DNA from: Undaria pinnatifida
Taxonomy: Eukaryota; Sar; Phaeophyceae; Laminariales; Alariaceae
Direction: 5' to 3'
Assembly (NCBI GenBank): GCA_012845835.1
Contig: JABAKD010000016.1
Coordinates: forward strand, 2,846,359 to 2,910,358
DNA: 64,000 bases
Every line of letters starts with the position of its first letter. The first letter of the stretch is position 1. The notes below the pieces were generated by a model. That model made no database searches and was not told the DNA's origin. It saw only the letters and a list, made by a program, of their open reading frames with translations. The position numbers and the translations under genes are program-made. This document shows positions 5,406-43,156 of the stretch, one piece after another.

Positions 5406-5520
5406 TTGGGTGGGCCCATACCTGCCAGCTGGAATGTCAGTTTGAGTGGCCTCCCGCCTTCTACCTCCGACTTCCGGAATTTTCGCGCGCGTAGGCTACA
5501 TGCATGGGTTGACCATCTCC
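5406..5520 (+). pseudogene. Possible gypsy polyprotein linker fragment
   Basis: The plus frame reads GLPPSTSDFRNFRARRLH. This resembles the linker expected between RNase H and integrase in the gypsy family found elsewhere in this window (minus-strand copy, about 26.6-26.8 kb). The match is short and based on pattern only; the flanks (4920-6780) are otherwise unassigned. Confidence 0.25.
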
Positions 5521-10560: not shown

Positions 10561-12440
10561 GTAGCCTCTTCCACGGATAGTTATAACAACTGACGCTTTC
10601 TGATAACCGCATAGCGCAGCCGTTGCATTCCGCTCTCGCCCGTGATCGGCAGGCCTCTGTAGACGCCATCGCCGCCGCCTAGATCGAAGCCGATCATATA
10701 GCCATTGTTAAGGTTGCTTACGTCAATACCGATACGCGCAAGGTCGAGCGCATCACATTTTGCCCCCCACGAACCCCAATCAAGCTCTCGATTTCCAGTA
10801 ACTTAAGCGCTCGGTCAAACAAGCCCAAACCGACATCCTGATGGTTTGCGATAAGCGTCGCAGCCAAGACGGCTTATAAACAGTGGTTTGGATCTCCGGG
10901 TAGGAACGCCCCCTTCGCAAAGCTTTTGGGAGTGCTATCGCCCCTGTTAAACCGTCAACCCCCACCCTCACCACCGTCAGTGATAATGTTTTTGGCCAGA
11001 TCTCACGCGCTCTTGGCCGGGGAGATTCAGGGCCGGCGGCTTTCGACCTTCTTCTCCAAGTGCTGAGCCGGCAATTTGACCACGGAAACGCGGCGTCTGC
11101 TCTTAGTGAGTTGAATGAATTTTGGTGTCCCACCCCTTGTGCAGCTTACTATCGTGCTTTCCCGATCGTAGTTTCGGGGGTGACAGGCAAGGAGCGAGCG
11201 GGCGTTGGCGGCGGGGTTGGGGTTGGCACTAGAGTTAGTCTGTTCGAGTGTAAATGAGCAGTTCCCGCAGCTCAGGTCTAGCCTGTGCATATATTTCACA
11301 AGATGCTCGTGTCCCATACCCGCCATCCGCCCAACGCCAACCAGCCTCGACAGCTGCACCCGAGCCCCGAACGTTGCCCATTGGTACCGGCAACCTTCCT
11401 CGGCTTTCCGATATAGCACCTTTTGGTACCTCGACGAGTTCTCATGCTTTTTCGCTCCCGGACGCCGCCGAAAAACGCCGCGCAATTTCCGTTTTTTCCT
11501 GTGGCACAGACTTAAGAATCATGTACCGGCCGCTGCTTGGGTTTAGCCCCGGCTGCAACTATACCCCGCGTCTTGCCCACGCGTGTTCCCACGTCTGCTG
11601 ACAATTCTTATAATGGCACCATTGCCGCGGCTGGAGCTCTTGCCCCGAGGGATACCCCCCTTCGCGCAACGCGTGCCCCGGGCTTTTTCCCCGCCGTGCC
11701 ACATTGACTCTTCCCTAGGGCGTCACCCCTCGCCTCGCTCCTACACATCCCGCTCCCCCTGGTTCCGACCGTACGACGACGATTGGTTAGAGGTGCGGAA
11801 TGGCCGGCACCGGAACCTCGGACCCCTTTTTTGCGTTCGTCTCGGCGTTTTCTCGCATGAGCGGCGGGTATTCTAGCCTGCTCCCTATCGCAGAGGATTC
11901 AGCGGGTTTAGCTACCCCGTCAACATTCTCAGGCGTAGGCACAGGGCAGGAACCACCTGCGGCGGGAACTAACGGGCCTCCCACCCGAAAGCCGTTTATT
12001 AATTCGTCTGAAGTGTCTACAGGCTCTATATCGTCTTGCGCGCCCACGTGCACCCTCTTGGGGCTTCCACGGTGTCTTAGGAACAGGAGCTCCCGACACT
12101 GCCCGTCTAACCCATGGTGACTCCATAACCTCCGTTCAACGTAACCGGATTGCTTACCCGCCGTCGCGCGGATAATCCGCTCCTCTCGCCAAGCTGAAGC
12201 AGTTCTGAGACCGCTGCTCTCGTTGACGTTTGGCCGACAAGCGCAGAGGGAGGCTATGCTGGCAATTTTTAGCCTACGTGCAATGACGACTCCCAGCCGG
12301 GCTGGGGACCCGTGGCCCGGCCCCGCGTCTCGCGCCGGCGACCCAGTGCCCCCGGAGGTCTGCACTGCGCACCCCTCCCATATCCTCCAACGGCTCGGTC
12401 CCCCGCACGCGAGTATTCCTCGGGAAACGTCGTGTTGTTT
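10560..12440 (+). pseudogene. Decayed gag to NADAR spacer of plus copy
   Basis: Only short broken frames are readable. One frame runs VKVAYVNTDTRKVERI, then SVIMFLARSHALLAGEIQ, with stops. By position this is the remainder of the gag-like region, but no family motif is secure. Confidence 0.3.
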
Positions 12441-12445
12441 TGGCG

Positions 12446-12905
12446 ACCCCTCTCCATTTTTTGCAATGGGTACCGTCGGCATTTCTCGTCGACGACGGTT
12501 CGTATTCCTGCGCAGAGTAGTACCTGGTGGCGGAAAAGACGCGCCCGCCTCTCCCATGACCACCATGCACTGGAACTCATACTGTGCTCGTCGGACTTCC
12601 AATCGCACAAACGTATCCGCCGCAGCGTTCGTGGTTTTGATCACGCCGTTTGAGAGCGTGAACGCAAAAAAATCGTTCTCGAAGGGGCTTTCGCCAAGTT
12701 CAGCAAAACCCGGTGATGAAACGTAATCTTTTGGACACTGATAGTAAGATTTTAGCAGAGGCTAGCCGTTTTGAGCAGGTGTGGGGCATTGGCCTCCGGG
12801 CGGACGACCCCGACGCCCATGACCCTCGCTTGTGGCGAGGAAATAACTTGCTCGGGCAGGCTCTTTCTACCGTCCGCGACCTCCTTCGCCACAATACGGA
12901 CGGGT
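12446..12905 (+). pseudogene. NADAR (YbiA/DUF1768-like) domain, frameshifted
   Basis: NADAR domains hydrolyse N-glycosidic bonds of ADP-ribose-type compounds and ADP-ribosylated nucleobases (family knowledge). The N-terminal part reads SAFLVDDGSYSCAE, then a TAG stop at 12518-12520 where the relative has Gln, then YLVAEK. A second frame gives QSHKRI..VRGFD and GAFAKFSKTR. A third, from 12713, gives LLDTDSKILAEAS, VWGIGLRADDPDAHDP and WRGNNLLGQALSTVR. These follow the family order: an EH..A.KA helix, KR.GR.V.NFD, AKF..NP, LL.TG..L.EAS, WGIGL..DDP and WRG.N.LG.AL..VR. At least two frameshifts plus the stop make this copy non-functional. The Trp of WGIGL is retained. Confidence 0.85.
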
Positions 12906-13378
12906 CGGCACACCCCTCCTCTTTCCCGCAATTATGCACTCCGACCTTATCCGAGGGAATTTATGAGATGAACCCCGCGCCACTGCTGCACCTTCGGGTC
13001 TCGTCACGCGCTTGTCCCGGTCCTCCTTCGGAGATTTCGACCCATTCTTCTGACGCTCCAGGTGACCACAGCCCCGATGTGCTGGCTGTCGCCCCATGCG
13101 CCGTCCCCGCCCTCGCGGACACGCTCTCGCCCGCCGAGCACGGCCCAAGCCTTGTAGAGGGCACGGCCACGTTTGACGACGCCTCTTCTATCACCAAAAT
13201 CGCCGTTCATAGTGGGACCACCAACACCACGGCTTTTGGTGGTGTCGCGCTCTTAGATACTGGCTCCCCTCAGACTTTCATCAATCGACACGTCTTGGAG
13301 CGGATGATTTCGGCTGGCGCGGACACCGCCCGTTGCGAGCAGGACTCTGCTCCTCGTTCATGGGCGGGGTTCGGCTAA
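12713..13378 (+). CDS. NADAR C-terminus fused to aspartic protease (open fragment)
   Basis: One uninterrupted frame of 221 codons begins inside NADAR (LLDTDSKILAEAS; VWGIGLRADDP; LLGQALSTVR). It passes through about 110 residues of Pro/Ser/Ala-rich linker and reaches a retropepsin active site, GGVALLDTGSPQTFI, at about 13246-13275. It is therefore direct evidence that NADAR and protease belong to one polyprotein. In LTR elements the protease matures Gag-Pol. The frame breaks at 13376 before the flap and the second protease motif, so this is a relic and not an intact gene. The ATG at 13-14 codons before the NADAR match is arbitrary. Confidence 0.75.
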   Translation: MMKRNLLDTDSKILAEASRFEQVWGIGLRADDPDAHDPRLWRGNNLLGQALSTVRDLLRHNTDGSAHPSSFPQLCTPTLSEGIYEMNPAPLLHLRVSSRACPGPPSEISTHSSDAPGDHSPDVLAVAPCAVPALADTLSPAEHGPSLVEGTATFDDASSITKIAVHSGTTNTTAFGGVALLDTGSPQTFINRHVLERMISAGADTARCEQDSAPRSWAGFG

Positions 13379-14254
13379 TCCGCTCCCCTGCGAATTTCAA
13401 CGAGTGTCCGCTTAAACGTCCAACTATTCCTGGCCCATCAGTTAACGAGCCCCCTCACCGTGTGGGCCTGCGTCGTTCCCCCCTCGGATATGCAACACGC
13501 GGTGTTCTTGGGACGCGATAGCTGGATGCGTTTTAAAACGCGCTCCTACCGCTCCCCCCCTCCCCGTCCGTCTGACGGGAGAATGGTTTTGGGAGCTGAC
13601 GCTATCACACCATGCCCCCACGGGTGCATCGGCTTTAGTGTCCGACCCCCTCGCCTCTGGCGGTGGTTTTCACCTCCATTACGATGTCGCCGATAGCGCC
13701 ACCTTGTCAGACGAGCCTCAGCTGTTCGCGGTTAATTCGGTCCACAGCAACGGCTCACCAGCCCTAACATGCCACCATTTCGTTGTAATACTGCCCCAGG
13801 TGGACCTTCTTTTTGATGAAGAATACTTTGTCGCCTTAGGGTGACAGGTCCTTCCCATGGTTGGCGCGGCCGACCTTGAGCCCGGTGAACTACTAGGAAT
13901 CGCCCACACCCCATTAATGCACGCACCCATTGACTTTTTCCAGCGTACGGACAGCGCCCCCGCCTTCTCCCCGTCCACGGACGTGTCTGAGGTTGCGGCC
14001 GTTTCGGAGCTCTCCCTCACAGCAGCTGCAGCCACGGCCTCGCCCTCGTCTGCCCTGCTCGAGCGTTTCTCTCCCGCACAACGTGTTTCGTTTCTAGGCA
14101 TCTGGGACCGTTTGCCGACGCATTTGCGCGACACAGATTTCGATTCACATAGCCCCGAGTGGGCCAATATGGCCATCGAACAACTAGACAACGTTCTCTG
14201 TGAATTTCCGGACGTTTGTTCCAGATCTAGACGGATTTTGGCTCTTGCTCTCTG

Positions 14255-14830
14255 GTGCCTTTCGAGACTTCGGTGCCGGAGGGTAGCGGGCCTGTCACCT
14301 CCCGGCCTCATCGCATCAATCCGATTTTAGCCAAAGTGGTGGGCGCCATCCTCAACCAGTATTTCGCTGCCGGTCTGGTCCAACTTTCAACTGCGCTGCA
14401 CTCGAGCCCGCTTGTGGTCGTCCTAACACCATCTGGGGGTGCTCGGATCACTGTTAACTACAAGAAGCTCAACGACATCATCAGACTCAGTCGGCTGCTG
14501 ATCCCGCGTGTGGATGAGGTCCTGGACTCTTTGGGCAAAGGACGTGTTTTTTCCCTTTTCGACCTCGTGTCGTCGTTCCATCAGATAACCACGCACAAGG
14601 ACGCGGTTCCGCCCCAACGGGTCTTTATGATAGGCTGGTTGTGCCTCAGCGCAGCAGCGCATCGCCTGGTTGGTTTGTCAAGGTCATTAACGAGGTTACC
14701 AAAGGCTTGAAACAAGTTGCGGCGTACTTGGACGGCGTGGTCGTGTTTGATTCAGACCCGTCGGCCCGCGTCAAGACCATTCGTGCCATCTTCGAGCGCC
14801 TACCACAATCGAAGCTTTGCCGTGTTTCCC
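14255..14830 (+). pseudogene. Gypsy reverse transcriptase domain, broken
   Basis: Frame one reads ARITVNYKKLNDIIRLSR, then RVDEVLDSLGKGRVFSLFDL and VSSFHQITTHKDAVP, the fingers and motif A region of Ty3/gypsy RTs. After a frameshift near 14640, a second frame reads VPQRSSASPGWFVKVINEV and AAYLDGVVVFDSDPSARV. The catalytic box normally reads Y-x-D-D; here it is YLDG, so the second Asp is lost. RT copies the genomic RNA. This copy is dead by both frameshift and active-site change. Confidence 0.85.
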
Positions 14831-15019
14831 CTTGCACGAGCACTCCTCCTTCTCGAAGATTCAGGGGCTCGCTGGCAAAGGCGGCCTCCATACTACCGAC
14901 GAAGGCATTTCTCTCCTCGTCCGTGATCCAACCCCGGCCCCCTATTCCCTACGACGGGCGGGACGCGTGGCTTGCCTTTTTGGTGACGAGCCCATTCATA
15001 TTTATGTGCCGTTACTGAT

Positions 15020-15870
15020 GCGCCCTTGAATCATGCAACCCTTCATTCGAATGCGTCCTGCCATCTCGGCACGGCACGTACACTTCGCATGCTCGAACGT
15101 TTCTATTGGTGGATAAGAATTAGCATTTACATCCGCTGGTGGCTGCACCACCGCCTGAAATTCCAAGCGCGGACGACAACGCGATTGGCGGTATTAACGG
15201 TTCATTGACCTGTCATCTCAATCCCCCCCCCTCCGGAACCAGGCATTGCAGTCAGCTTGGACTCTTTTGGGCCACTGCCCGCCCACACACACGCCCCGGG
15301 GTATCACCTACATCTTGCTTTTCACCGACCGTGTTAACCGCCGCGCGGACATGTTCGCTGTCACCGCTGCAAAATGTAGAGCTGAGGGTACGGGCAACGT
15401 CCTTATCAACCGGTACCTTCCCCTTTGGGGGTACCGCAAAATATCCTCTCGGACAACGGGTTCAATTGCTGCTCCAAGCTTTCGCACGTCGTCTGCGAAC
15501 TTCTTGGTGTTCGAAACATCTCCATCAGCTCCTACCACCCGAGCGGTAACGGTGGTGTGGAGCGTGTCAACCCCACAATGGCCCAAATGCTGGCTCTGGT
15601 CGTCAACGAGCGTCAAGACGTTTGGAATGCGCAACTACCTCACGTGGAGTTTGCCGACTACAACTCGGTAAGCGCCCCCACTGGTGTGGCCCCCAACGAT
15701 GCTCACACGGGCGGGCTCCAACGCCTCCCGCTTACTATTTTCGACCCCTGCGGGGTCGCCAGTCACCAGAGCCTTGCCCGCGACGACCTCGCATATTGCG
15801 ATCTGGCGTCGGAACGCCAACAGCGCGCCAACGGTATTGTTCGCGAAAAGCATGCCTTGATAGTTTCCCG
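15020..15870 (+). pseudogene. Gypsy integrase, HHCC to DDE core, broken
   Basis: The HHCC-type start (ATLHSNASCHLGTARTLRML, then ERFYWW) is at 15030-15115. The core appears as ILSDNGFNCCSKLSHVV (DNG Asp), SSYHPSGNGGVERVN (catalytic Glu) and ERQDVWNAQLPHVEFADYNS, then TGVAPNDAHTG. This order is that of gypsy/chromovirus integrases (rve fold). The central Asp region (about 15.25-15.40 kb) is split between frames, with TYILLFTDRVNRRADMF readable in one of them. It would insert the cDNA, but this copy is interrupted. Confidence 0.88.
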
Positions 15871-16500
15871 TGTGGAGCGGCGAAACTCAGCCTTTTCGGA
15901 CGCTTTGCGCCAGATCTCCAACTTTCGTTGTGGGTTATTGGGTTTGGCTGTATTATACGGCCTCCACCATTCGCCAAGGCGCAAAGGCCAGCACGGATGC
16001 CAAGATGCTCAAGGCCAAATTTGCGCTCGATCGGACGGGCCCTTACAAGACTCTCGCGGTCGGCCCCTGTCCCTCTAGCGATACACCGGACGCTTTCTTC
16101 CTCAGGGATAAACTCCTCTATTTGGATCTCCCCACAGACATGCCCGGCGCAGACGCGCACCGCCTTGTCTCCGTGGAGCGCTGGAAGCCCTGAGCCAACC
16201 CCCACGACCCCGACGACATGGTTAAGTATCTTCGGAATGGACTGACGCAATTCGTGATCAACAATTTCGCACAAAAATTCCCCATATCACGTCCCTCAAG
16301 ACAACGTGTCAGCGCCCCTCCAGCGGCTAGAGAGAGGTGAAAAAGATGCCCGGCATGGACATCAATGGCCACCAATCGCTCCGTGGTAGGGGTGGAGTCA
16401 TCGCGGTGATGTGATGTACGAGACGCGTTGGACTGGATTCTCTCGCTCATCATGAGAACGGGAGATGGACCATCCAGCTCTCACGACAACATATCTTACT
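15870..16500 (+). pseudogene. Integrase C-terminus and chromodomain-like end
   Basis: The frame reads YYTASTIRQGAKASTDAKML, KAKFALDRTGPYKTLAVGP and LLYLDLPTDMPGADAHRLVS, ending ERWKP. This is the GPY/F-type tail seen after the gypsy integrase core (G-P-Y-K-x-L). Further frames give MYETRWTGFSRSS and LSRQHILLYWAGT, resembling a chromodomain (Y.T.W.G....SWE...YW). Such domains guide integration to chromatin marks in chromoviruses. Frames are interrupted. Confidence 0.65.
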
Positions 16501-16509
16501 CTACTGGGC

Positions 16510-17105
16510 TGGCACTACATCACGAACAGACATCAGAACGGGATCGAACTTAACTGGCTGAATGAGGAAGAGGCACAGGAAAGCTTCACGCCACTACAGC
16601 TGGACGTGCTTCACGCTTTGTGGGAGCAGTATCAAGGGAGCTGATAACCGGACTCGACCGCCAGGAACATGCACGAGGGGGGAAAGGGAAGTGACTCCCA
16701 GATAATAATCACTTAAGGCATTTCCAAAAGGAACACACATCAGGAGGGAGTTTGCCGACATTCGTGGCTGGAGAAAAGTATTTGTGGGAGAGGTGTACGA
16801 CTTCAGAAAGTCGTGCTGACGTGTAAGGTATCAAGATGGTGATTGGGAGGAAATGAATCGTCAAGAAGTTAGGCGAGGGAGGGATTTGGCGACATAATCA
16901 GTTTCAACCGTGTGTCCCAGATAAATCCAGCGAGGAGCCGGATGAAACCTGGGAAAGTGAATCACCAGGAGATGCAACGGGAAAAGGTGTCGGCGACCTC
17001 AGCCCAAACCATGTTTAGACGGTGGGTCTGGCTGAGAAGGGTGGAACCTCCGTTGACTGAGGCGACATTCTTCAAAGATCCGGAAGAAACCAGGCTTGGG
17101 GGAGT
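16510..17105 (+). pseudogene. Fragment of a second LTR-retroelement polyprotein
   Basis: Reading resumes in a different style: LNWLNEEEAQESFTPLQLDV, then WRKVFVGEVYDFRKS and VRYQDGDWEEMNRQEVRRG. The last block has the shape of the Tudor/chromo-like end of some Ty3/gypsy polyproteins (GEVYDF..WRV.Y.DGDWEE). A purine run (GGCTTGGGGGAG at 17093-17104) is followed directly by TGTTGTGTAGGGG, as expected for a polypurine tract and 3' LTR start at 17105. It appears to be a different family joined to the gypsy copy. Confidence 0.45.
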
Positions 17106-17620
17106 GTTGTGTAGGGGACGTGGGAGCACGAAAAGCGTACGAGTGTGTCGTAGACGTATAGTTTCGGTGCACTAGGCGCAGAGCGCACGGAGAAGTAAAA
17201 TCTGTGGGTGTGAGGTGGACGTTTCTGTGACAGCCGTCAGACTGCTGAATAATGATAACGCCGTTCCCAGGTGGCCGTGCAAACTGCAAGCTTCACCCCT
17301 CTTAGTACATAGTGTTATTCAAAAACGCTTCCCATGTGAAAGAAGAAGAGTGAAAAATGAAAAGGCAAACAACTGTGCACACCCGTGCATAAACGCTGCT
17401 CGCTCGTCATGCATACGTCGTCACCCGTGCTTGCGAGACCCAACTGCTTGATCACGCTGCCGGTAACTTGGAAACTTGGACAATCACTCGTTGAGCTTGG
17501 TGGAAATCTTGGAGGAACGAAAAGTACTGTTGGGTCTCGCTAAAGTTCTACGTACGAACTCTCAAGGAAGCAAGTGAGAGGAAGTAGAATGACAGAGGTC
17601 TGAAAACACTGCCGTAACAT
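17105..17620 (+). other. Possible LTR-derived and unassigned sequence
   Basis: If 17105 is an LTR start (TGTTGTG after a purine tract), this stretch contains its body. I found no second copy in the window and therefore no LTR end. Confidence 0.25.
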
Positions 17621-17737
17621 AGAGGCGTGGGAGTGGGTTTTGAAGAGCCGCATCTTCGAGTTTATTCTAGACCGTGGAGCCGGTGCTTTCCCAAATCTTC
17701 CATGTTTCTACAAATGCGGCTCATCAGGGTGGGCTAG

Positions 17738-21553: not shown

Positions 21554-22827
21554 ATGACCTCAGTACTATCCGAGACTCTAGTGTCGAATGCCGCCGACAT
21601 AGCGCCCCCTATTCGGCGCAAGCAACTACCGAGGGGTTGGTGTGCGCCCGAGGAAATAAAAGCGGAGTTGGATGCACGATGGCAGGGTGGGGAAGACGCG
21701 AGGAAACGGCTTCGTTCTGCTCCAAATGATCATGGTCTACGGCGAGCCTTGAAGGCGACCAGCAAGCAGCTCAAACGCACGTGGGCGGAAGCTGTACAGA
21801 GATTCTTCGAAGATTACGTCAGCCACCTCGAAGGGCGTATCCGAGAAGGTGATCAGTTTGTTCTCTAGAAGCATTTAAAGGGGATGGTTGTGTAAGGGAA
21901 GAGGACGTTTAACCCGCAGTACATCAAGGACGAGGAAGGTCGATTGCTGCGGGATAGTGCCCTGATTCGGGAGCGGTGGGTGAGGTGGTTTCATAAATTG
22001 CTTAGCACCAAGTCGCCGACCCTTGATCCGAGCATTGTGGGCGAGCTTAAGCAGTGATCCCCATGCAGACCACTGGACGATGTCCCGTCAAGGTACGAAG
22101 TAGATGAGGCAATCCGTGCGCTGGTGAACCGAAAGGCGGTAGGGCCCGATGGCCTTCCGGCCGAGCTCCTGAAGGTTTTGGCCGACGAAGTAGAATTGGA
22201 TTCTCTCGGAAAGTTTCACGATATCATCGTCGCTGTGTGGAGGGGGGGTGGCGTGCCGCAGCAATGGAAATATGAAATGATTAAGATGCCGCACAAGAAG
22301 AGAGATCGGACGGAGTGTGGCAACTATCGTAACATCTCCCTCGTGGCTCACGCAGGCAAAGTACTCCTCAAAGTCATTGCGGGTCGCCTTAGTGACTACT
22401 GCGAACGCGAGAACATTTTGCCGGAGGAACAGTGTGGGTTCAGACCCCAACGCTCGACGGTTGACATGATGTTCGTAGTACGACGACTGCAGGAACTGGC
22501 GCGGAAGAAGGACACCCCCTTGTACAGGTGCTTTATTGGCCTCACCAAAGCACATGACTCCGTCGACCGAACCCTTCTGTGGGATGTCCTTGCTCGTTTT
22601 GGCGTGCCACCGAGTATCCTCGCCGTCATCCGCCAATTCCACGACGGCATGCAAGCATGCGTGTGGTTGAATGATGGAGAGTGCTCGGATAAGTTCGACG
22701 TGGGGCAAGGTCTCAGGCAAAGGTGCATGCTCGCGCCACTGCTGTTGAACATGTTTTCACGGCGGTACTGCGTGTGGCCGATAAACACTTTATCTCTGGT
22801 GCAGCCGTTACGGACAACATGATGCAG
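21554..22827 (+). pseudogene. LINE reverse transcriptase, N-terminal part (to motif B)
   Basis: Readable blocks are [67 protein letters not shown], then [17 protein letters not shown] (motif A) and [16 protein letters not shown] (motif B). In motif A the usual Asp before L-T-K-A is Gly, which would abolish catalysis. Stops lie near 21867 and 22056. Motif C lies beyond the MITE insertion. Confidence 0.9.
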
Positions 22828-22831: not shown

Positions 22832-23076
22832 ATTCTACGATAGCCCCCCCCAACGTAATTTCAACGAAATCGCCTGTTTTGAAACCAGCTCCCGGCCGTA
22901 CCTCCTGAAATACGGCGCCCCTTGCCACCCCCCGACTTCATTGTTCGATAGTCCTTTGCAAACAAGAAAGCACACGAAGAAATATTCTTCATAGCATCCT
23001 TCCTCGAGTCGAGCAGCCATCAAACATTTGTTAAAGAAAACCGCTGTTTTTTTTTGGGGGGGGGCATCGTAGAATT
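22832..23076. mobile_element. MITE, TIR family ATTCTACGAT, inside LINE RT
   Basis: Termini ATTCTACGATAGCCCC and its inverse (GGGGCATCGTAGAAT) bound 245 bp without coding capacity. The flanks carry AGTC at 22828-22831 and 23077-23080. Removing the element plus one AGTC restores the LINE reading frame across the site (..DNMMQS then LQLQRKKKK), a strong check on the boundaries. The homologous older copy is at 3336-3587. Confidence 0.9.
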
Positions 23077-23080
23077 AGTC

Positions 23081-24118
23081 TGCAGCTCCAACGAAAGAAG
23101 AAGAAAGGGGAGAAGAAGGGCACATCACGCGCAGGCAAAGTCGACGGGCGGGGGGGGAAGGAGGAGAAAGAGGTGCAGAGGTTGTGGGGTATGCTGTACG
23201 CTGACGATGCGGGCATCGTATCGCGATCATCATCAGAAGGGTTGGAGAGGATGATTAGGGTGGTCGTGACTACGTGCTCGGCGTTCGGTCTTACGGTCTC
23301 CGAGGCCAAAACGAAGATCATGTGCCTGCAGACTAAAGGTGGGGGGAAGGTGTCGTTTACCATCAATGCAGCCGGCCAGGCATACAAACAAACGATCGAA
23401 TTTGTGCACTTGGGCGGGGGTATCAGCGCAGACAGAGACCTCAGCATCGAGATAACGCGGCGTCTTCAGAGGGCCTGGGCGTGCTTCCAGTGGTACAAGA
23501 TGGAAATCTATGATTGCCCGAGTGTGCTCTTACGGTTGAAGGTGCGGTTGCTGAAAGCCGGGGTGATCGAGACACTATTTGACGATTGCATGACGTGGAG
23601 TCCGAGTAAGCCTGACTATGACAGGCTACGACGGGTTCACCACTCCATGCTCTTCCGATGCCTCGGATGGCGTAAACGGAAGCGCGACGACCACACCCTA
23701 TCGTACGCCGACCCGCTTGGCAAGACAGCTTCCGGGAGCATAGATGCGATAGTGCGCAAATAGAGGGTATTGTTTGCGGGATTCGTAGCACCTGTGAGGG
23801 AGGAGCGTCTGCCACAGAGGGTGATGTTTGGGGAGCTCGTTGGGGGTAAGGGCTACTCAGGGGGGCAAGAGAAGGACTGAATGGTGCACCCTGAAGGAGG
23901 ATATATCGGCCTTTGGAATGAAGTTCGAAGGGTGGCCAAAGGCTGAACAGAAGGCCGGTCGATATTTTCGATGGGTAGAGGAGGGAGCAGGGTCATTCAT
24001 GCGGAAATGGTATGACGCGGAGAGATGCAAAGATGCAGAGCGACAGCAAAGACCGCGGCAGCGCCAACCATCGTCGGCCACTTTAAGCGGCCGGGAAGAG
24101 GGGGGCGGGGGCGGGTAG
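23081..24118 (+). pseudogene. LINE reverse transcriptase, C-terminal part
   Basis: After a Lys-rich segment the frame reads VQRLWGMLYADDAGIVSR, with an intact YADD catalytic motif C. It continues with FGLTVSEAKTKIMCLQ and FVHLGGGISADRDLSIEI. Next come LRLKVRLLKAGVIETL, DDCMTWSPSKPDYDRLRRVH and LGWRKRKRDDHTLSYAD, the thumb and C-terminal region of LINE RTs. A stop occurs at 23761. A shifted frame resumes with WPKAEQKAGRYFRWVEEGAG up to about 24118. Confidence 0.9.
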
Positions 24119-24889: not shown

Positions 24890-25089
24890 CTAGCCCACCC
24901 TGATGAGTCGCGTACGAAGAATTGTGGTAGATTCGGGTACAGTCCGGTTCTACGAAGTAGACCATGAGTCGAAGATGCGGCTCCTCAAAACCCACTCCCA
25001 CACCTCTAAACGGCCTGGCCATGAAGCCAGGAAAACGCGAAGAAAAACAATTGAAGGAAACACAGACCCTATAAGAAGGTAAGCCACCG

Positions 25090-25390
25090 ATTGGAACCCT
25101 GCTTGCGTACCGCCGGTGTGGCGGGGGGGGGGGGGGCGAAACGGAAAAGGCACCACGGCAAAACAAACCCCAGACTAAGGCGCTACGGGAAGGAAAACCA
25201 TCTTCGAAAGCCTCCCGCGTACCGTCAGAGTGGTGGAGAGGGCGAGACGATGAAATACAAATTGAAGGGAAACGCTGGCGCTAAGACAAGGGAAAGTCAT
25301 GCCAGAAACCTTCCACAGCCCCACCGGCACAGCAGGGGGGGAGATGGGGAAACGACAAATATCGTGAACGTAAGGCGCCAATACCTATAG
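25090..25390. repeat. Minisatellite, about 110-bp unit
   Basis: The start CGTACCGYCRGWGTGG recurs at 25106 and 25219, with a weaker copy at about 25320. Each is followed by a G-run, then ACGAYRAA..CAA. It lies in the 3' untranslated part of the minus gypsy copy. Confidence 0.5.
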
Positions 25391-25775
25391 CCCCGCGAGG
25401 GGGAGAAGTGTCGAGCCGGAAAAACTAGAGCAAATACAACACAAAAAAGATAGCACACAGTCTCGTGCCACAATATGCATGAACATGGTACCCTGGTCGC
25501 CCCCCCGGCTTTGGGCTGAGGAGGGCGTCGGCAGGGCGAATATGAACAAACACGAAATATCGATAGTCCTGTGCATCTAGTAACCACCTGATTGTCCAGA
25601 CCCTGGCCCGACACTGAGCGGGGGGGTCGGCAGGACTACAAAAACATGAACCGCCCCACATCCAGTCAAAACGCTCGAAACACCACAAACAGCCTAAGGA
25701 CAAGAACTCCAAAACTCAAAATCTAGAAAAAACAAAACAATGAAAAGCTATCGAGCAGCGGCGGCGGCTTGAAAC

Positions 25776-26073: not shown

Positions 26074-26649
26074 GGTTGAACCGGTGGTCGCGGTGAAGTC
26101 TGTCTCTTGTGTAGAACTCCTTGATAGAGAAGTCGACTGTGCGATGATCGTCGCCGCAGCCAGGGCTTCCGCGGAGCCCGTGCCACCCTCAATGGGTATG
26201 GCAAAAACCGAAGCGAAAACGATGTCAGCGGCAGGCGAAATCGACCCGCGGCCTGTACAGCTTTCGGCAGTGGCGACGGGGGCAGAAAGACGAGCGACGA
26301 ATCCCCCTGGGGGGGCAGAAAGGCCGTCAACCCTTATACGTGGCTCGTGTGTGCAAAATCGTGAACATCGGTAGAGGTGAGGAGGAGTCCACCCAAGACA
26401 GCATGCTCAGCGCGGGGCACGACCCCACCCAAAGCATTACGTTCAGCGCGGGGCGCGGGGCACGAGCCCACTCAAGGCAGTGCTTTCGGTGCGGGGCACG
26501 AGCCCACCCAAGGCAGTGCTTTCGGTGCGGGCCACGAGCCCACCCAAACCAACCCCTGGGATTGGCGGGGAGGGAGTGCGTAGGCCGCCGGTCCGTAGGA
26601 GGTAGATACCGCTATTTCCAACGGGGTTGGGTCTTGTCAACCCCGCGGG

Positions 26650-27094
26650 GTTAAAGGTTGTCAAGCCACTGTGGTCGTAATCCGTAGCAGGCTCTGACAA
26701 GCGGGCTAGAAAAATCGGCGTTGCCGTTGGCGCTGCCTTTGCGGTACTCGAGGGTGCAATCGAACGCGGTGACGAACTCAAGCGACCGCTGGACTCGTGC
26801 ATTGAGGGTCCCCACATTGCCAATTCTCTCCTGTGCCTTGTGGCCGGAGGATATGCAAAGAATTGTTCCCCAAATCACCCTCGGAGGCGTTTGGGAGCCC
26901 AAACAAATGCTGCCGGTCTCCAAATCTAGAGGAATCCAGTGCCTTTCCGAGTCGAGCGTTGCTCGACTGATATACGCGAATTTGATGGTGATCGAAACGT
27001 CGTCCAACGTCACAGCACCCCCGGCGAAACAGGGGCCGTGTTCTGACAGCGCAAGGTCAGGGGCCGACGCCAGAAGCTTTCTCCAAAACTTCAC
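26650..27094 (-). pseudogene. Pre-protease linker joined to RNase H (minus copy)
   Basis: The frame starts LALSEHGPCFAGGAVTLDDV, which matches the plus copy just upstream of its protease (SPAEHGPSLVEGTATFDDAS). It then jumps to ISRATLDSERHWIPLDLE and TAFDCTLEYRKGSANGNADF, the RT-associated RNase H signature of gypsy elements. The switch point, about 27.0 kb, marks a deletion of protease plus RT. RNase H would remove RNA from RNA:DNA hybrids. The resulting chimera is not functional. Confidence 0.7.
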
Positions 27095-27281: not shown

Positions 27282-28532
27282 TTACTTCTCGAACGGTAGG
27301 AAGTGCCTCACCGAGCAAATGTTTCCTCTCCACTGGCACGGGTCGTCGGCCCTGGGATCGTCCGCCTGGAGCCCAATGCCCGACGCTGGGTCCAGAGGAT
27401 TGGCTTCAGCCAGAAGCTGGTTGCCCGTGCTCAAAAAGTGATTTTTCATGGCTGGATTATGCGTGAATTTGGCGTAGGTGGCAGATAACACGGCGTTTTG
27501 TTTCTCCCTGTGACAAGCAGCGGGGTCAAAGTTGTGAACGCCTCGACCGATGCGTTTGTGTGAGCTTGGTTCAGGCGACAACATGATGAGTTTCACTGCT
27601 CGATGATCTTTAAAAAGCCTGGCCTTTTCGGCCATCATATGCTGCTCCGCGCAAGAATGTGACACGTCGTCCACGACAAACGACGAAGGGGACCACGGTG
27701 AAAAATAGAATGGGGGCTGCCAGAACAAAAATATTTTGTATGTGGAGTATTCGAGAGAAGGGTCAAAAACCGTGTTGGAATTTCGGGCCTGCAATGTCCC
27801 CATCCGGGAACACCAGGCCTCGGCACTTTGGACCTGTGGTGTCTCCTTGCGGGAACACCAGGCCTCGGGAGCACGACGCGAATCCGAACCCACGGTTTCT
27901 CGACCCGGGTCGTCTTCGCTCGTTGGCGGAAAAACCCAAGAATCCGTTCTGACTGCGCCCGAAAAATAGTCAAAAACCGACGGTGCCAAGCCCTTGGTAG
28001 CTTCGTTGGACACTTGGGTCTGCAATGTCCCCTTCTGGAAACACCAGTCCTCGGCTCTGTGGGCCTGTAGTGTCCCTTTATGGGAACACCAGGCCTCGGG
28101 AGCATGGTGCGAGCCCGAACCCGCGGTTTCTCGCCTCGGGTCCTCCTCACTCACTGGCGAAAGTTCGTAAGAAGCCGTCCTTATTGCACCCGAAAAAGAG
28201 TCCAACACCAATCTTGCCAACCCATCGGTAGCCTCGTTGAGCACTTGGGTCTGCAATGGCCCCCTCTGGGAACACCAGTCCTCGGCATTTTGGGCCTGTA
28301 ATCTTCCCGTCTGGGAACACCAGGCCTCGGGAGCACGACACGGATCCGAACCCACGGTTTCTCGCGTCGTGGCCTCTTCGCTCTTTGGCGCAAAAATCGC
28401 AAGAAACTGCTCTAACTGTGCCCGAAGGGGCAGGGACTCTGAGGTGTTTCTGCTTGATGAGAGGCGCGATTCTTCAGTAAATTTACGGGAAAAGCGTCCA
28501 GCTGACCAGACTGGAGGCCGTGGCTTCACCAC
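27282..28532 (-). CDS. Open frame: 77-residue tandem repeats plus NADAR domain
   Basis: This 416-codon frame has two parts. Residues about 30-255 hold three tandem copies of a 77-residue unit (APEAWCS..GTLQ, AEDWCS..GTLQTQV, NEATKGLA, RETVGSDS). Residues about 270-416 are a NADAR domain with FYFSPWSPSSFVVDD, SCAEQHMMAEKARLF, SHKRIGRGVHNFD, ATYAKFTHNPAMK, LSTGNQLLAEANPLD and GIGLQADDPRADDPCQWRG. Family function: hydrolysis of ADP-ribose-linked N-glycosides. Two changes suggest decay. The Trp of WGIGL is Ser, and a 1-nt loss relative to the plus copy after WRGN shifts the last helix. It is part of a retroelement polyprotein, and the start codon is not meaningful. Confidence 0.85.
   Translation of the reverse strand: MVKPRPPVWSAGRFSRKFTEESRLSSSRNTSESLPLRAQLEQFLAIFAPKSEEATTRETVGSDPCRAPEAWCSQTGRLQAQNAEDWCSQRGPLQTQVLNEATDGLARLVLDSFSGAIRTASYELSPVSEEDPRRETAGSGSHHAPEAWCSHKGTLQAHRAEDWCFQKGTLQTQVSNEATKGLAPSVFDYFSGAVRTDSWVFPPTSEDDPGRETVGSDSRRAPEAWCSRKETPQVQSAEAWCSRMGTLQARNSNTVFDPSLEYSTYKIFLFWQPPFYFSPWSPSSFVVDDVSHSCAEQHMMAEKARLFKDHRAVKLIMLSPEPSSHKRIGRGVHNFDPAACHREKQNAVLSATYAKFTHNPAMKNHFLSTGNQLLAEANPLDPASGIGLQADDPRADDPCQWRGNICSVRHFLPFEK
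27780..28440 (-). repeat. 231-bp in-frame tandem repeat, three copies
   Basis: The motif GCAATGKCCCC begins at 27791, 28022 and 28253, an exact 231-bp period, which is 77 codons. Within each unit a shorter internal duplication (APEAWCS../AEDWCS..) is visible. Keeping an exact multiple of three over 230 bp suggests selection for an open frame while the repeat expanded. Confidence 0.85.
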
Positions 28533-28562: not shown

Positions 28563-29515
28563 CTATACCACTGGGGCAAACGTAGCCTGAAGCACGTGGG
28601 TTAGCGTGCTGGAAGACAAAGTAGGGCCCGTAGACCCTGTGGATGTCTTCAGGAACGGGGCTCGGGGAGATGGCAACACAATTCCACCCGACAAAGCTCT
28701 ATTCCGGTAGGTCTGTTGCAGGAAGGAGACGAGGTAGCTAATCTTGCCGATTCTTCCTTGATGGAAAAAAAGGATAGAGCGCCCGCTGCTATCGCGAACA
28801 AACACCGGATCGAGCCTCACAAAAGATCTCGGTGTTTTAGTGTTGGCCTTCCCATACCCCGAACCGACCACCACCTCGAGATCAAAAAAGTTTTTGAGGG
28901 TCGGCCGTCCCACACGTCAAACCGACCGCCACCGCATGGTCAGGGAGAGGGAGGGGGTGAACACGTTCGCCTAAAAAGGCGACGCGCCGTCACCGCAGCT
29001 ACATTCCTGCGAGGCGCGTGCCTGGGTGGAGCGCGCAAAGCGCAGGCTCCCGTGCCATGGTTGATGGGGGCGGCGTTTGGAGTGTGTACCCCCAATGCCG
29101 CGTTTATGCCGCGGCTGAGGGGAACGGCGCTGGAAGCGCGGGTTCCCGTCGCCGAACAGACCATGACCGAGGAGACTGTCGCTGGACGTGCGCGTTCTCG
29201 CAATCGAAAAACATCACCTGGCTGAGGGAACCACGCTCGAAGCGCTAGTTCCCGCCGACGGTACTGCGCCGTGAGAATCGTCAACACACGGCGTAGAAGC
29301 CCGTGGGCTTTTGACAGAGGCAATTTGTGCTGAATTATTGGAGAGGCTAACCACAGATACACGAGCATCTTGTGAAACCAAAAGAGGTGTCCCCGGCAGT
29401 GCCGTCGATAGACAGGCCGGGTGTGCCGTACCGCCGTCGAGCTGTCAAATGCCGGTACGGAATGCGCCAGGCTGGCGCGCGTTAGGATTTCCGCCCCGGT
29501 TATGGGCGGCCCCAA
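28563..29515 (-). pseudogene. Gag-NADAR spacer of minus copy
   Basis: Fragments such as RSFVRLDPVFVRDSSG followed by LPSPRAPFLKTSTGS are readable in shifted frames. No domain is recognised. By position it corresponds to 10.6-12.4 kb of the plus copy. Confidence 0.3.
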
Positions 29516-30111
29516 AGCGCATTCCAGGAGCAGGAGCGGGGGGAGGCGGGCGGGGGCGGGATACCACCATGGTGATCCGACGTCTTTGTGTTATCGTTGT
29601 GACCGTTTACCTGGCCCTGACCCTGGTGGTACTCTCGCGATTGGCCTGAATGATGGCGACGATTTTTCTTGTGGTTGTTCGGACGAGAAGGTTTGCCGTC
29701 TCGGCGGTAGCAGATCATGCGTGCTTGCTGACGTCGATATTCGTCATCGTCGCCAAGTTCGCCAAGTTTAGGGTTCAAACAGCCGCTCGCATCAATGAAA
29801 GGATGCCTACAATGCTTGAAGGAGTGGTTGTCTTCGTGGCCATTGAGGCAAGGCCCCCGGTTTTCTCGGAGGGCATTAGCGTGAGCCGAGGGTGAAAGAA
29901 GGCCGCTCCAAAGGGGAGGGTCGTCGGTCTTAAACGAGACACTAACGGCGAAAAATTCTGTATAATGATGTTTTTCTAGTGGCCAGTAGTTCGATATCTG
30001 GTCAAGCCAAGGGTCAGATGAATAATCGATGGGCATGTCAGTTGGACGATAGCTCATATCCCGTCTGCCACGAAAGCGACTGGGACGGTACTCGGCCCTG
30101 GCCGCGCCCAT
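29500..30111 (-). pseudogene. Gag C-terminal, Cys/His-containing segment (minus copy)
   Basis: The 203-codon frame reads RRDMSYRPTDMPIDYSSDPW, then ENRGPCLNGHEDNHSFKHC followed by FIDASGCLNPKLGELGDDDE, and a basic His/Asn/Gln-rich tail. The Cys, His and Cys spacing (C..NGHEDNHSFKHC) looks like a modified nucleocapsid zinc knuckle, which in gag binds genomic RNA. It has no perfect CCHC box, so the knuckle call is inference. Confidence 0.5.
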
Positions 30112-30488
30112 GATCGGCGGGCCGGGGCCCCGACGGGGTGGATGACCGCGCTCCCGTCGAAGAAACAGGTAGATAAAATATTATTCGCCGTTGACGGCAG
30201 GTGTCTCATTGCGCGCTACATCACTAAAGGTCCGCCACATAGCATCCAACGAGGCGAATGGCCGCGGGTCCGTTGCCTTCGAACCAGGGTACAACGGGCA
30301 TGAGAGTCGGAAATTGCTCATTCACCGCCATCCGAACCACCTCCAACACCACATCCGTCCCCGGAGAAAAAACAGACTCACTCCCCGTCAAGGTCGACAC
30401 AAGTACGCGAAAATCCCGACTGATATCGCAGAAAGGTGTGTCGTTACACACTCCAAAAGTAAGCAACTTGGTGCAGCCCTCCCCCGTG

Positions 30489-31076
30489 TCAACCCGGTCG
30501 AAGTGTGTCATCAGCAGGCGTAACAGGAGGGTGAAGGCCACAGGCCCAGATGCCCGCCCCTGCCATGGCTCGCGACACCTGCCCAAAAAATTCATCGATC
30601 AAGGTCGTCATGCGGGCGGTAGTGGGCATGTCAGGCGTTATAGCACGTGTGAACGCCATGTGGAGCGGGTGGTCCCAACTGGTTACCCACGTGGGCGATT
30701 GTACGCCCTCTGAGCAACGGTCGTTGGAGCGCATGAATTTGTTGGACATTGCAGATCTAATCGAACGTGTGAGTTGCTGCGCGCCGTCAGACTTGCTAAA
30801 ACAGGTGGGGAAAGGCAGCAAAGAAATGCGGGCTACGTCCTTGTGAGGGAGCTTGACATCCGGCTTATCCGATTCATCAAGCGTGGTTTTGGCTGTAGCA
30901 GCGGCAGTGGCAATCGCGGAGGTACGAGCGCGGACCAAATCCGAAGAAACAGGTTTAGTGTGATCACCTGACACAGTCAGTTTACTCAGGCGCTCGGCGG
31001 AGACAACATACACCAGGGAAGGAGCCACTCGCCTGTTGACTGCTGCCACGGTTACCTCGTCGTGGTCCGTGCTCAA
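30489..31076 (-). pseudogene. Gag middle, helical segment (minus copy)
   Basis: The 195-codon frame contains SAIATAAATAKTTLDESDKP, then RISLLPFPTCFSKSD and HPLHMAFTRAITPDMPTTAR. It is alpha-helical in character and lies between the Gly-rich part and the Cys/His part. The capsid-like role is inferred from position only. Confidence 0.4.
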
Positions 31077-31142
31077 AGTCGAAGATAAGCGGGAGGAGGT
31101 AGACGAGCCGTCCCACGCTGAACGTCCTCTCGCGCCATTCCT

Positions 31143-31943
31143 TCACCCTCCGTTGCCTCCGAGAGAACTGCGGCCACCGCCCCGGTTGTTGCGACCACGG
31201 TTGCTCCCTTGGCGACGTCCTGAGCCACCACCAGCACCCGACGCACCTCCCCCGCCTCCACCACCACTGCCACCCCCGCGGCGGCGGTAGTGGTCGCCAC
31301 CCCCACTATTTTTTGCCCCACCCACGGAGCTACCACGCCCACGGTGGCGGTCCCCGCGATCACCACTGTCGCCGCATCGCTTTTTGTCACGGCGGCGTTC
31401 CCCCAACTCCTCCTCCGGAGTCGGCCATAAATCGGGGTCGTGGGCCTCGTCGTGAGCCATTCTCAGGGCCTTGACGAGGGCAAGGGTCGGGGCGGCTCTC
31501 TTCTGTCCGGCATAGGAGGTAAAATCCATGCGGGCCCGGGCCGCCTCCACTGAAAGAGCTTCCGCGTATAGGAATGCCTGCCCCTCTGACGTGAGGAGGG
31601 CGGAGGCCGTTTTCACCACCGCGGTCGCCAACTCCGAAGAGAACTCCACCCTCGGTTCAGACGCCATGCACTCGACGCCGCCCTTAAAAAGGCGTCGTCC
31701 CCGGGCCGTGGTCGCTAGGATGCGCGTCGAAGACGAAGGGGCCGCGGTAGCTTCCGCCCACGCCGACCCGACTGAATGAGCGAGGGCTTGATGCGCCCTC
31801 TCTGCCACCACGGACGCCTCCCGCTCAGTGTGTTTTGCCCGCTCGATGTCCTCATCATTTAGACGTCGGCGTGCTATACGCCGGAGCGTCATATGCCTGG
31901 CGTCCTTCAGCGCCCGCTGGGCCCGCTTCGCCTCGGATGCCAA
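31143..31943 (-). CDS. Gag-like N-terminal frame with Gly/Arg-rich tail
   Basis: This 266-codon open frame has an N-terminal charged helical half (KRAQRALKDARHMTLRRIAR, ERAHQALAHSVGSAWAEA) that may be coiled-coil. A conserved-looking middle follows (EFSSELATAVVKTASALL, FLYAEALSVEAARARMDF), then a Gly/Arg/Ser-rich tail of about 80 residues (RDKKRCGDSGDRGDRHRGRG). RGG-type tails bind RNA, which suits a gag nucleoprotein. It heads the minus gypsy copy. I know no named family for the helical part. Confidence 0.5.
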   Translation of the reverse strand: MASEAKRAQRALKDARHMTLRRIARRRLNDEDIERAKHTEREASVVAERAHQALAHSVGSAWAEATAAPSSSTRILATTARGRRLFKGGVECMASEPRVEFSSELATAVVKTASALLTSEGQAFLYAEALSVEAARARMDFTSYAGQKRAAPTLALVKALRMAHDEAHDPDLWPTPEEELGERRRDKKRCGDSGDRGDRHRGRGSSVGGAKNSGGGDHYRRRGGGSGGGGGGGASGAGGGSGRRQGSNRGRNNRGGGRSSLGGNGG

Positions 31944-33699: not shown

Positions 33700-34160
33700 C
33701 CTGCGAAAACAAGCCCCTAAGATGAGACTCCCCTACCTTGCTCCTGTTTATGGCACCCACAGAAAATTCCGGATATAAGGAGCGTCCGAACCGACGGCAG
33801 CAAGAGGGGCAGCATGCACCAAAACCGCAATATAACGGCAGCGTCCAGTCCAACAGCAGGGTATATACAGACAACGCACGCACAAACCGAAGTACAAGGG
33901 GGGAAATTGGGTATGTAGCATTTGCCCCAACCGCAGTGTAGGTAGGGGGGGGGCAGCACAGTAAAGGGTCCTCATAAAACGCCCACACCCACCGCACTAA
34001 AATGGGCAGCATCTACCCTAGGCGCAGTGTAGGGGGGGGGGGGGAGCGAAGTAAAGGCTCGTACCAAAACGTCCACATTCACCGCACCAAAAAAACGGGC
34101 AGCGTCTACCCTGCTACCTAAGCGCAGTGTAGGGGGGACGGGCAGCACAGTAAAGGGTCG
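33700..34160. repeat. Minisatellite, about 90-110-bp unit
   Basis: GCGCAGTGTAGGGGGG and CAGCACAGTAAAGGGTC recur at about 33940, 34025 and 34130, with an older unit upstream (33810-33930). Several poly-G runs are included. Confidence 0.65.
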
Positions 34161-43150: not shown

Positions 43151-43156
43151 CGTAAT

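What the first reader, a model, noticed from the sequence alone, without database searches (positions are those of the whole stretch)
27282..27726. NADAR (YbiA/DUF1768) domain inside a Ty3/gypsy-type retroelement
Seen directly: an open minus-strand frame carries the NADAR motif series in order (SCAEQHMMAEKA, KRIGRGVHNFD, AKFTHNP, LSTG, LAEA, GIGLQADDPRADDP, WRG). A second diverged copy on the plus strand (12446-12905) continues in one frame into a retropepsin LLDTGS. Family knowledge: NADAR domains act on ADP-ribose/NAD-derived compounds and remove ADP-ribose from nucleobases. Inference: the element may use it to counter ADP-ribosylation-based or NAD-based defence, or to repair modified nucleic acid during replication. 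I do not know of a described algal LTR element with this layout.
Basis: partly seen in the sequence, partly recalled or inferred. Interest (0 to 1): 0.9.

Follow-up and report, generated by a model that had tools for sequence, protein, structure and literature searches.

The report
Algal retrotransposon carrying an ADP-ribose-removing enzyme
The window holds two broken copies of an algal jumping gene (Ty3/Gypsy type) whose polyprotein includes a NADAR enzyme domain, a kind that elsewhere removes ADP-ribose from DNA and RNA; the arrangement was published for a related alga in 2025, and here it is found abundant, with young copies and under selection, in another genome.

Summary
The minus-strand frame matches NADAR (PF08719, E=1.3e-28); its model matches the Phytophthora NADAR/ADP-ribose structure (8bau, E=2e-8). 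Both window copies are decayed relics of a Ty3/Gypsy lineage whose Pol reads NADAR-protease-RT-RNase H-integrase-chromodomain-like part. The host assembly (511 Mb) gave 150 scored NADAR matches (capped); 22 of 150 lie in unbroken frames of 2000 aa or more. In an even sample, 19 of 20 are followed by Pol domains on the same strand. One element of each of two families has identical LTRs. NADAR is under purifying selection (dN/dS about 0.2 against about 0.8 for the adjacent linker), less than RT or integrase. Residues corresponding to Glu43, Lys50 and Glu125 are kept; two ADP-ribose-contacting Trp are lost in the window copy. The layout is not new: a 2025 Ectocarpus paper (PMC12477816) describes Gypsy elements with NADAR at the N-terminus of Pol. 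This is a new member of that kind. My best mechanism, not shown: NADAR strips guanine-linked ADP-ribose from the element's own RNA or cDNA. Whether that counters defence or damage is open.

The parts
27321..27725 (-). NADAR (YbiA-family) domain of the minus-strand copy; its frame ends in a stop at 27284-27282, out of frame with the rest of Pol
   Evidence: PF08719 E=1.3e-28; fold match 8bau; equivalents of E43, K50, R79, E125, D130 kept, W89 and W133 lost; frames
27785..28405 (-). tandem 231-bp repeat (2.7 copies) in the linker upstream of NADAR
   Evidence: TRF; self-BLAST
29503..31710 (-). gag region of the minus-strand copy, broken into several frames; remnant of a CCHC knuckle
   Evidence: 75.9% DNA identity to the gag part of a family A element; knuckle CLNCHEDTHSLRNC in that gag
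33936..34160 (-). 5' untranslated repeat region of the minus-strand copy
   Evidence: about 68-79% DNA identity to the tandem-repeated 5' region of family A
26501..26979 (-). RNase H remnant of the minus-strand copy; protease core, RT and the start of RNase H are deleted between 26988 and 26979
   Evidence: DNA alignment to family A pol jumps from position 2008 to 4099; tblastn of P0039
25753..25943 (-). C-terminal end of Pol in the minus-strand copy; integrase and chromodomain-like region deleted upstream of it
   Evidence: family A pol 7312-7501 aligned; alignment stops at 4961 before it
24895..25718 (-). 3' untranslated region of the minus-strand copy, up to where the 3' LTR would be expected
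   Evidence: 68% identity to the family A region that ends at its 3' LTR
12408..12865 (+). NADAR of the plus-strand copy; frameshifted, with an in-frame stop at 12518-12520
   Evidence: tblastn of P0037, P0039 and P0046; PF08719 on the C-terminal half, E=5.8e-16
13250..13267 (+). retropepsin motif LLDTGS of the plus-strand copy
   Evidence: frame 12662-13378; aligned to P0039 273-692
14231..14844 (+). reverse transcriptase of the plus-strand copy, frameshifted; RNase H deleted downstream
   Evidence: tblastn 50-66% identity to P0037/P0039; pol alignment jumps from 3669 to 5557 apart from one weak 116-base piece
14829..16283 (+). integrase region of the plus-strand copy, frameshifted
   Evidence: tblastn of P0039 residues 1729-2206 in three pieces
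16334..16525 (+). chromodomain-like C-terminal segment of the plus-strand copy, broken
   Evidence: tblastn of P0039 2221-2277; the same segment of P0039 gives Pfam Chromo E=0.0036, below cut-off
17620..17732 (+). 3' untranslated end of the plus-strand copy
   Evidence: 81.6% identity to the family A region that ends at its 3' LTR

Best explanation
SHOWN: the window holds two dead copies of a Ty3/Gypsy lineage whose Pol polyprotein starts with a YbiA-family NADAR domain, followed by protease, RT, RNase H, integrase and a C-terminal chromodomain-like part. In the same genome NADAR usually sits in front of such Pol domains, is kept by purifying selection, and is present in unbroken young copies. 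INFERRED from the biochemistry of the family: the domain is an ADP-ribosyl hydrolase that removes ADP-ribose from guanine bases of RNA and DNA. INFERRED, weaker: made as part of Pol and so packaged with the RNA, it clears such adducts from the element's RNA and cDNA so that reverse transcriptase is not blocked. The source of the adducts (host ADP-ribosyltransferase, invader toxin, or NAD-derived damage) is unknown. My estimates: identity as NADAR in Ty3/Gypsy Pol 0.97; active guanine-ADP-ribosyl hydrolase 0.6; acts on the element's own nucleic acid 0.4.
For: PF08719 match and fold. Long polyproteins elsewhere: P0039 (2422 aa) and P0046 (1998 aa); 2473-aa and 2371-aa frames in this genome. RT-RNase H of P0039 best matches Ty3 among solved structures (7q5b, 1e-97) and its NADAR matches 8bau (1.2e-14). 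E43, K50 and R79 equivalents in 25 of 25 retroelement-labelled NADARs, E125 in 23 of 25. Selection: a family A element against the window minus copy gives NADAR dN 0.122, dS 0.606 (134 codons) and, for the adjacent linker, dN 0.282, dS 0.367 (115 codons); differences by codon position 17/15/40 against 31/27/28 (Fisher p=0.004). Other NADAR pairs give dN/dS of about 0.26-0.38 (four pairs) and 0.29 for the C-terminal part of the plus copy. Pooled over 10 copies, third-position share 0.48 for NADAR against 0.38 and 0.41 for two linkers (9 copies each; Fisher p=0.010), 0.59 RT, 0.58 IN. Families A and B: NADAR pN 0.374, pS 0.762. NADARs hydrolyse guanine-linked ADP-ribose in DNA, an oomycete YbiA-type NADAR included (PMC11543638, passages and section 12), and in RNA (PMC11833690, passages).
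Against: NADAR is less constrained than RT, RNase H or integrase (A against B: pN 0.374 against 0.142, 0.171, 0.191), and the post-RNase H linker has a similar pN (0.39) there. The 10 copies are related, so shared differences count more than once and the p-value is too favourable. W89, a phosphate-contacting residue, is lost in 8 of 25 retroelement-labelled NADARs, all 8 in the 17-row clade that holds the window copy, and the minus copy also lost W133. The window's sub-clade shares a frame break right after NADAR, so some copies spread, or decayed together, with NADAR cut off from Pol. No activity, packaging or host ADP-ribosyltransferase was shown.
Confidence: 0.4

Rival explanations
1. Counter-defence: the host (or its bacteria and viruses) ADP-ribosylates foreign or replicating nucleic acid, and the element carries NADAR to reverse it, as bacterial NADAR antitoxins reverse DarT1.
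For: NADAR is the antitoxin of DarT1 (PMC11543638, passages). Phage and giant-virus proteins have NADAR folds, and 27 loci in viral contigs encode relatives, so the domain recurs in mobile elements.
Against: No host nucleic-acid ADP-ribosyltransferase was identified; the PF14487 searches did not complete. The domain has the YbiA-type Glu, not the Asp of DarT1-linked NADARs (PMC11543638).
Confidence: 0.2
2. RNA processing or repair: the domain acts on ADP-ribose derivatives arising in RNA ligation, splicing or tRNA-primer metabolism, or helps process the element RNA.
For: The Ectocarpus authors suggest processing of the RNA intermediate (PMC12477816, passages); the NADAR protein SNA-3 is implicated in nematode trans-splicing (as told in PMC11125620, first part read); roniviruses carry NADAR (PMC11287256, passages).
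Against: The activity demonstrated so far on nucleic acid is guanine-ADP-ribose hydrolysis; NADARs tested were inactive on phosphate-end ADP-ribosylation of RNA (PMC11833690, passages).
Confidence: 0.2
3. Non-enzymatic role: the fold binds nucleic acid or Pol precursors in the particle and catalysis is not needed.
For: 8 of 25 retroelement-labelled NADARs lost W89 while the core stays conserved; NADAR is less constrained than RT or IN.
Against: E43, K50 and R79 equivalents are kept in 25 of 25 and E125 in 23 of 25; changes at the positions corresponding to E43, K50 and E125 cost E. coli C7 NADAR its protection from DarT1 in cells, although the Ala change at the first had only a minor effect in vitro (PMC11543638 section 12).
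Confidence: 0.12
4. Passenger: a host or bacterial gene captured by chance, without function in the element.
For: Both window copies are decayed.
Against: Shared with Ectocarpus elements, one group in the tree, dN/dS about 0.2, and in unbroken frames of copies elsewhere in the genome.
Confidence: 0.04

Closest known systems
NADAR-bearing Gypsy lineage of Ectocarpus (e.g. Gypsy-12_Ec32; Genome Biol 2025, PMC12477816)
   Same: [quoted passage not shown] Ectocarpus proteins P0037, P0038 and P0042 fall in the same NADAR group as the window copy.
   Different: Another genome (511 Mb, unnamed), other families, with repeat-bearing linkers in the window copy; the window copies are dead. The Gypsy-12_Ec32 sequence itself was not in hand.
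Phytophthora nicotianae NADAR (PDB 8bau) and E. coli YbiA (2b3w)
   Same: Fold; E43, K50, R79, E125 and D130 equivalents of 8bau.
   Different: Not part of a retroelement polyprotein; 25% and 22% identity in the structural alignments.
DarT1-NADAR toxin-antitoxin systems (BC4488 family)
   Same: Superfamily and presumed chemistry.
   Different: Asp instead of Glu at the E125 position and a DarT neighbour (PMC11543638, PMC11125620); the element has Glu, and no such domain was reported by Pfam in the Pol frames scanned.
NADAR in ORF1 of Tx1 LINEs of oyster (reported in PMC12477816)
   Same: NADAR in a retrotransposon protein.
   Different: Non-LTR element, different position; known to me only from the paper's passage.

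Membership tests
NADAR / YbiA family (PF08719) | profile match above the curated cut-off | tested here: met
   100.7 bits against 35.1 for the minus copy, 59.6 bits for the C-terminal half in the plus copy
NADAR / YbiA family (PF08719) | YbiA fold | tested here: met
   model pLDDT 89.9, 8bau E=2e-8
NADAR / YbiA family (PF08719) | catalytic Glu43, Lys50 and YbiA-type Glu125 (P. nicotianae numbering) | tested here: met
   all three in the window minus copy; E43 and K50 25 of 25, E125 23 of 25 retroelement-labelled rows
NADAR / YbiA family (PF08719) | phosphate-contacting Trp89 and Trp133 | tested here: not met
   window minus copy has Cys and Ser; both Trp kept in P0037-P0039 and P0043-P0046, while P0042 has Trp89 and a gap at 133
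NADAR / YbiA family (PF08719) | ADP-ribosyl hydrolase activity | not testable with these tools
   needs enzymology
Ty3/Gypsy (Metaviridae) | PR-RT-RNase H-IN order in Pol | tested here: met
   unbroken frames in this genome (protease by motif and alignment, rve just below its cut-off); 17 of 20 sampled copies with all domains in order; deleted in part in both window copies
Ty3/Gypsy (Metaviridae) | RT closest to Ty3 | tested here: met
   P0039 against PDB sequences: Ty3 7q5b 1e-97 and 4ol8 1e-66, the best of 31. By similarity, not by an RT tree, and on a relative, not on the window copies
Ty3/Gypsy (Metaviridae) | long terminal repeats and target-site duplication | tested here: inconclusive
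   Two elements elsewhere in the genome: LTRs of about 269 and 491 bp (TG...CA), identical within each pair; duplication CTAC for one, imperfect for the other. No LTR pair established for either window copy
Ectocarpus NADAR-Gypsy lineage | NADAR at N-terminus of Pol | tested here: met
Ectocarpus NADAR-Gypsy lineage | C-terminal chromodomain | tested here: inconclusive
   Pfam Chromo E=0.0036, 17.6 bits, below the 25.1 cut-off, on an 85-aa piece of P0039
Ectocarpus NADAR-Gypsy lineage | same RT lineage | not tested
   no RT tree built; the NADAR tree groups Ectocarpus and window rows
DarT1-NADAR toxin-antitoxin | DarT partner and Asp at the E125 position | tested here: not met
   Glu at that position; no ADP-ribosyltransferase domain reported in the Pol frames scanned with Pfam

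The most novel reading that the evidence does not exclude
A eukaryotic LTR retrotransposon lineage carries, inside Pol, an active guanine-ADP-ribosyl hydrolase that reverses ADP-ribosylation of its own RNA or cDNA by host or invader enzymes: a retroelement counterpart of the bacterial DarT1/NADAR conflict. This would imply that nucleic-acid ADP-ribosylation restrains transposons in brown algae.
Probability: 0.18. Interest if true: 0.85.

Novelty: new member of a known kind. Interest (0 to 1): 0.47.

Why it matters
NADAR enzymes reverse ADP-ribosylation of guanine in DNA and RNA, a modification known mainly from bacterial conflicts. A retrotransposon that keeps such a domain under selection suggests that the modification, or a related adduct, matters to retrotransposition in brown algae. 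Unbroken families in one genome make that testable. The layout itself is already published for Ectocarpus.

Tried and rejected
Rejected: chance match (E=1.3e-28); host gene inserted by chance into one copy (19 of 20 sampled NADARs followed by Pol domains); an intact element in the window (both copies decayed). The direct repeats 8572-9609 / 18053-19113 were considered as LTRs of the plus copy and not accepted: each side is internally repeated, and the 3' untranslated end aligned to family A stops at 17732. A programmed frameshift after NADAR was considered: the two long Pol frames examined run through without one, so I read the shared break in the window's sub-clade (found by motif) as loss. 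A Tudor-like second domain at the Pol C-terminus was considered: no Pfam match, and no PDB match better than E=0.56. First structure model poor, replaced.

Not answered: whether Pol copies of this lineage without NADAR exist, and whether the host has a DarT-type enzyme (genome search busy). Labels: of the 25 rows called retroelement, 11 show Pol domains, a protease motif or, for the window row, the aligned element; the other 14 are so labelled by similarity. Row P0053, grouped with other eukaryotes in that script, is named as a Bacteroidota sequence. Rows dropped: one search kept 127 domain rows with at least 125 profile columns, 121 after removing duplicates, so most partial rows among P0016-P0035 were left out; one search left out four long-branch rows including 8bau; the pooled table left out regions over 35% different (linkers of L156) and regions with few sites. 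The 10 copies were those of the 20 sampled that differ from the reference and keep all domains (L150-L157, L159, L160). The script stopped with an error and was run again, mended.

The nearest rows to the retroelement NADARs (Myxococcota/Planctomycetota; SH-aLRT 92, 81 with one viral row) are too weakly placed to name a donor.

Full report
What is there. The minus-strand frame 28562-27282 matches Pfam NADAR (PF08719) with E=1.3e-28 over residues 280-414, and the plus-strand frame 12662-13375 matches the C-terminal half with E=5.8e-16. A model of the window domain built on 45 sequences (mean pLDDT 89.9) matches, at E<=0.001 among solved structures, only the Phytophthora NADAR with ADP-ribose (8bau) and E. 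coli YbiA (2b3w).

Relatives. Searching the NADAR part of the minus-strand frame among proteins of 234-745 aa gave 36 hits, 38 to 73% identical, 35 of them without a name. P0013, P0015, P0023 and P0035 run on into a retropepsin motif LLDTGS. Searching at polyprotein length gave an Ectocarpus protein P0037 (1398 aa) with NADAR, RVT_1, two RNase H models, integrase zinc-binding and rve domains, then P0039 (2422 aa) and P0046 (1998 aa) with the same domains, among 18 hits. In the solved-structure comparison P0039 matched Ty3 best by its RT-RNase H (7q5b, 1e-97), PFV integrase by its integrase (1.7e-15), and 8bau by its NADAR (1.2e-14). The order NADAR-PR-RT-RH-IN is that of a Ty3/Gypsy Pol with NADAR in front.

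The host genome. The window is a stretch of a 511,146,479-bp assembly in 68 contigs. A PF08719 search gave 1454 first-look candidates, of which 150 were scored; all 150 exceed the curated cut-off. That is a lower bound; the two window copies are not among the 150. Of these 150, 22 lie in stop-free frames of at least 2000 aa (my count). From the list I took every seventh entry (20 of 150, one of them the family B reference) and read 7.5 kb from NADAR onwards: 19 of 20 carry at least one of PR, RT, RH or IN on the same strand, and 17 of 20 carry PR, RT, RH, IN and the C-terminal part in the same order. One shows NADAR alone (L161), one only PR (L162), and one has PR, RT and RH with the rest on the other strand (L158).

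Two families. Family A (2473-aa frame) and family B (2371-aa frame) both have NADAR, RVT_1, RNase H, integrase zinc-binding and rve matches in Pol; rve is slightly below its cut-off in both (31.1 and 30.9 bits against 32.6). One element of each was examined piece by piece. Family A: a gag frame upstream with a CLNCHEDTHSLRNC zinc knuckle, LTRs of about 269 bp (TGTTAAG...TTAACA) identical to each other, flanked by CTAC on both sides, a purine-rich stretch before the 3' LTR, and a span of about 15.7 kb; a further LTR-like stretch, 88% identical, lies about 0.8 kb outside the 5' LTR. Family B: LTRs of about 491 bp identical to each other, flanks not exactly duplicated, span about 15.8 kb. LTRs identical over this length indicate recent insertion.

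Anatomy of the window copies. Against family A, the minus-strand copy runs from 5' repeats at 34160-33936 through gag 31710-29503 and pol 29494-25753 to the 3' untranslated end at 24895, with two large deletions: protease core through RT and the start of RNase H, and integrase through the chromodomain-like part. Its NADAR frame is shifted out of the Pol frame right after the WRG motif. By motif, the same shift is seen in P0001, P0002, P0003, P0007 and P0010, which with the window row form one clade of six (SH-aLRT 89), and also in P0004, P0009 and P0032. The plus-strand copy keeps NADAR, protease, RT, integrase and part of the chromodomain-like segment in broken frames from about 12408 to 16525, lacks RNase H, and has its 3' end at 17620-17732. 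No LTR pair could be established for either window copy.

Is the domain functional in the family? Residues that contact ADP-ribose or were shown to matter in other NADARs (PMC11543638, section 12 read) were counted on 25 rows labelled retroelement (11 by Pol features, 14 by similarity): E43 25, K50 25, R79 25, Y84 replaced by Phe in all 25, K75 23, E125 23, D130 22, W133 20, W89 17. In seven longer proteins (P0037-P0039, P0043-P0046) all of E43, K50, R79, W89, E125, D130 and W133 are kept; P0042 has gaps at the last three. The W89 losses are all in the 17-row clade that holds the window copy. At codon level, family A against the window minus copy gives dN 0.122 and dS 0.606 for NADAR (134 codons) and dN 0.282 and dS 0.367 for the adjacent linker (115 codons); differences by codon position are 17/15/40 and 31/27/28, a difference of shares with Fisher p=0.004. 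Four other NADAR pairs give dN/dS between about 0.26 and 0.38, and the C-terminal part of the plus copy 0.29. Pooled over 10 diverged copies, the third-position share is 0.48 for NADAR, 0.38 and 0.41 for two linkers, 0.43 for the post-RNase H linker, 0.55 PR, 0.59 RT, 0.63 RH and 0.58 IN (9 copies for the three linkers); NADAR against the first two linkers gives p=0.010, too favourable because the copies are related. Between families A and B synonymous sites are near saturation, while pN is 0.374 for NADAR, 0.327 PR, 0.142 RT, 0.171 RH, 0.191 IN and 0.596 for the NADAR-PR linker, but also 0.39 for the post-RNase H linker. The domain is thus selected, but less strictly than the core enzymes.

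Origin. With 80 bacterial and 21 viral rows, 18 retroelement-labelled NADARs fall on one side of a branch (SH-aLRT 94). With longer proteins added and four long branches removed, 25 do (SH-aLRT 86), next to a few Myxococcota and Planctomycetota sequences with weak support. The bacterial rows come from the 79 distinct loci kept of 169 confirmed, chosen by closeness to the query, so donors are not sampled evenly, and few other eukaryotic NADARs were included. One capture in the ancestor of the lineage, from a bacterial or viral source, is the simplest reading.

What is known. [quoted passage not shown] In the library searched, it is the only paper holding NADAR, Gypsy and transposable element as whole words; of 104 papers with NADAR and retrotransposon only 20 were listed. 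The kind of element is therefore known. What is added here: a second, larger genome with young unbroken copies, a count of context, grouping with Ectocarpus, codon-level selection against a neighbouring control, and the catalytic residues.

How it probably works. Among the hydrolase families tested, NADARs were the only ones to remove ADP-ribose from guanosine bases in RNA (PMC11833690, passages), and they do so in DNA (PMC11543638, passages). A copy in Pol would be made in proportion to RT and carried with the RNA into particles, where it could clear adducts that stop reverse transcription. That chain is inference. Counter-defence, RNA processing and a non-enzymatic role remain open, and no host ADP-ribosyltransferase was identified here.

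Host identity. This is inference from recall, not a test.

Noticed in passing
22058-22822 and 23035-23763 (+): A reverse transcriptase frame (RVT_1 E=3.2e-16) and a following frame, probably an unrelated non-LTR retroelement (my reading) between the two NADAR copies.
   Followed up: no
43156-45365 and 47782-49991: A 2210-bp direct duplication at 99.9% identity, itself built of inverted and direct sub-repeats.
   Followed up: no
359-2620: A 275-bp tandem repeat (359-1837, 5.4 copies) followed by a 223-copy ACT trinucleotide array (1952-2620).
   Followed up: no
L135 (family A Pol, about the last 90 residues); also P0037, P0039: A conserved C-terminal segment after the chromodomain-like part (FWYK..DG.WWLGKI...Y.VRFLD.PGP); the P0039 piece has no Pfam match and no good PDB match. 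Perhaps a second chromatin-reader domain.
   Followed up: partly
P0001, P0002, P0003, P0007, P0010 and the window minus copy: A sub-clade sharing a frame break right after NADAR and loss of Trp89, suggesting decay or spread as a non-autonomous subfamily.
   Followed up: partly
P0040, P0041 (Patella), P0049 (Oopsacas minuta), P0047, P0050-P0052 (no organism given): Long proteins with four (P0040, P0041) or one NADAR stretch and no other Pfam domain over its cut-off; they lie outside the retroelement group in the tree.
   Followed up: no
PMC7922944 (Esi0017_0056): A stress-induced Ectocarpus DUF1768 protein improves stress tolerance in Arabidopsis (passages); the word retrotransposon does not occur in its main text, so a link to NADAR retroelements seems not to have been considered there.
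   Followed up: no
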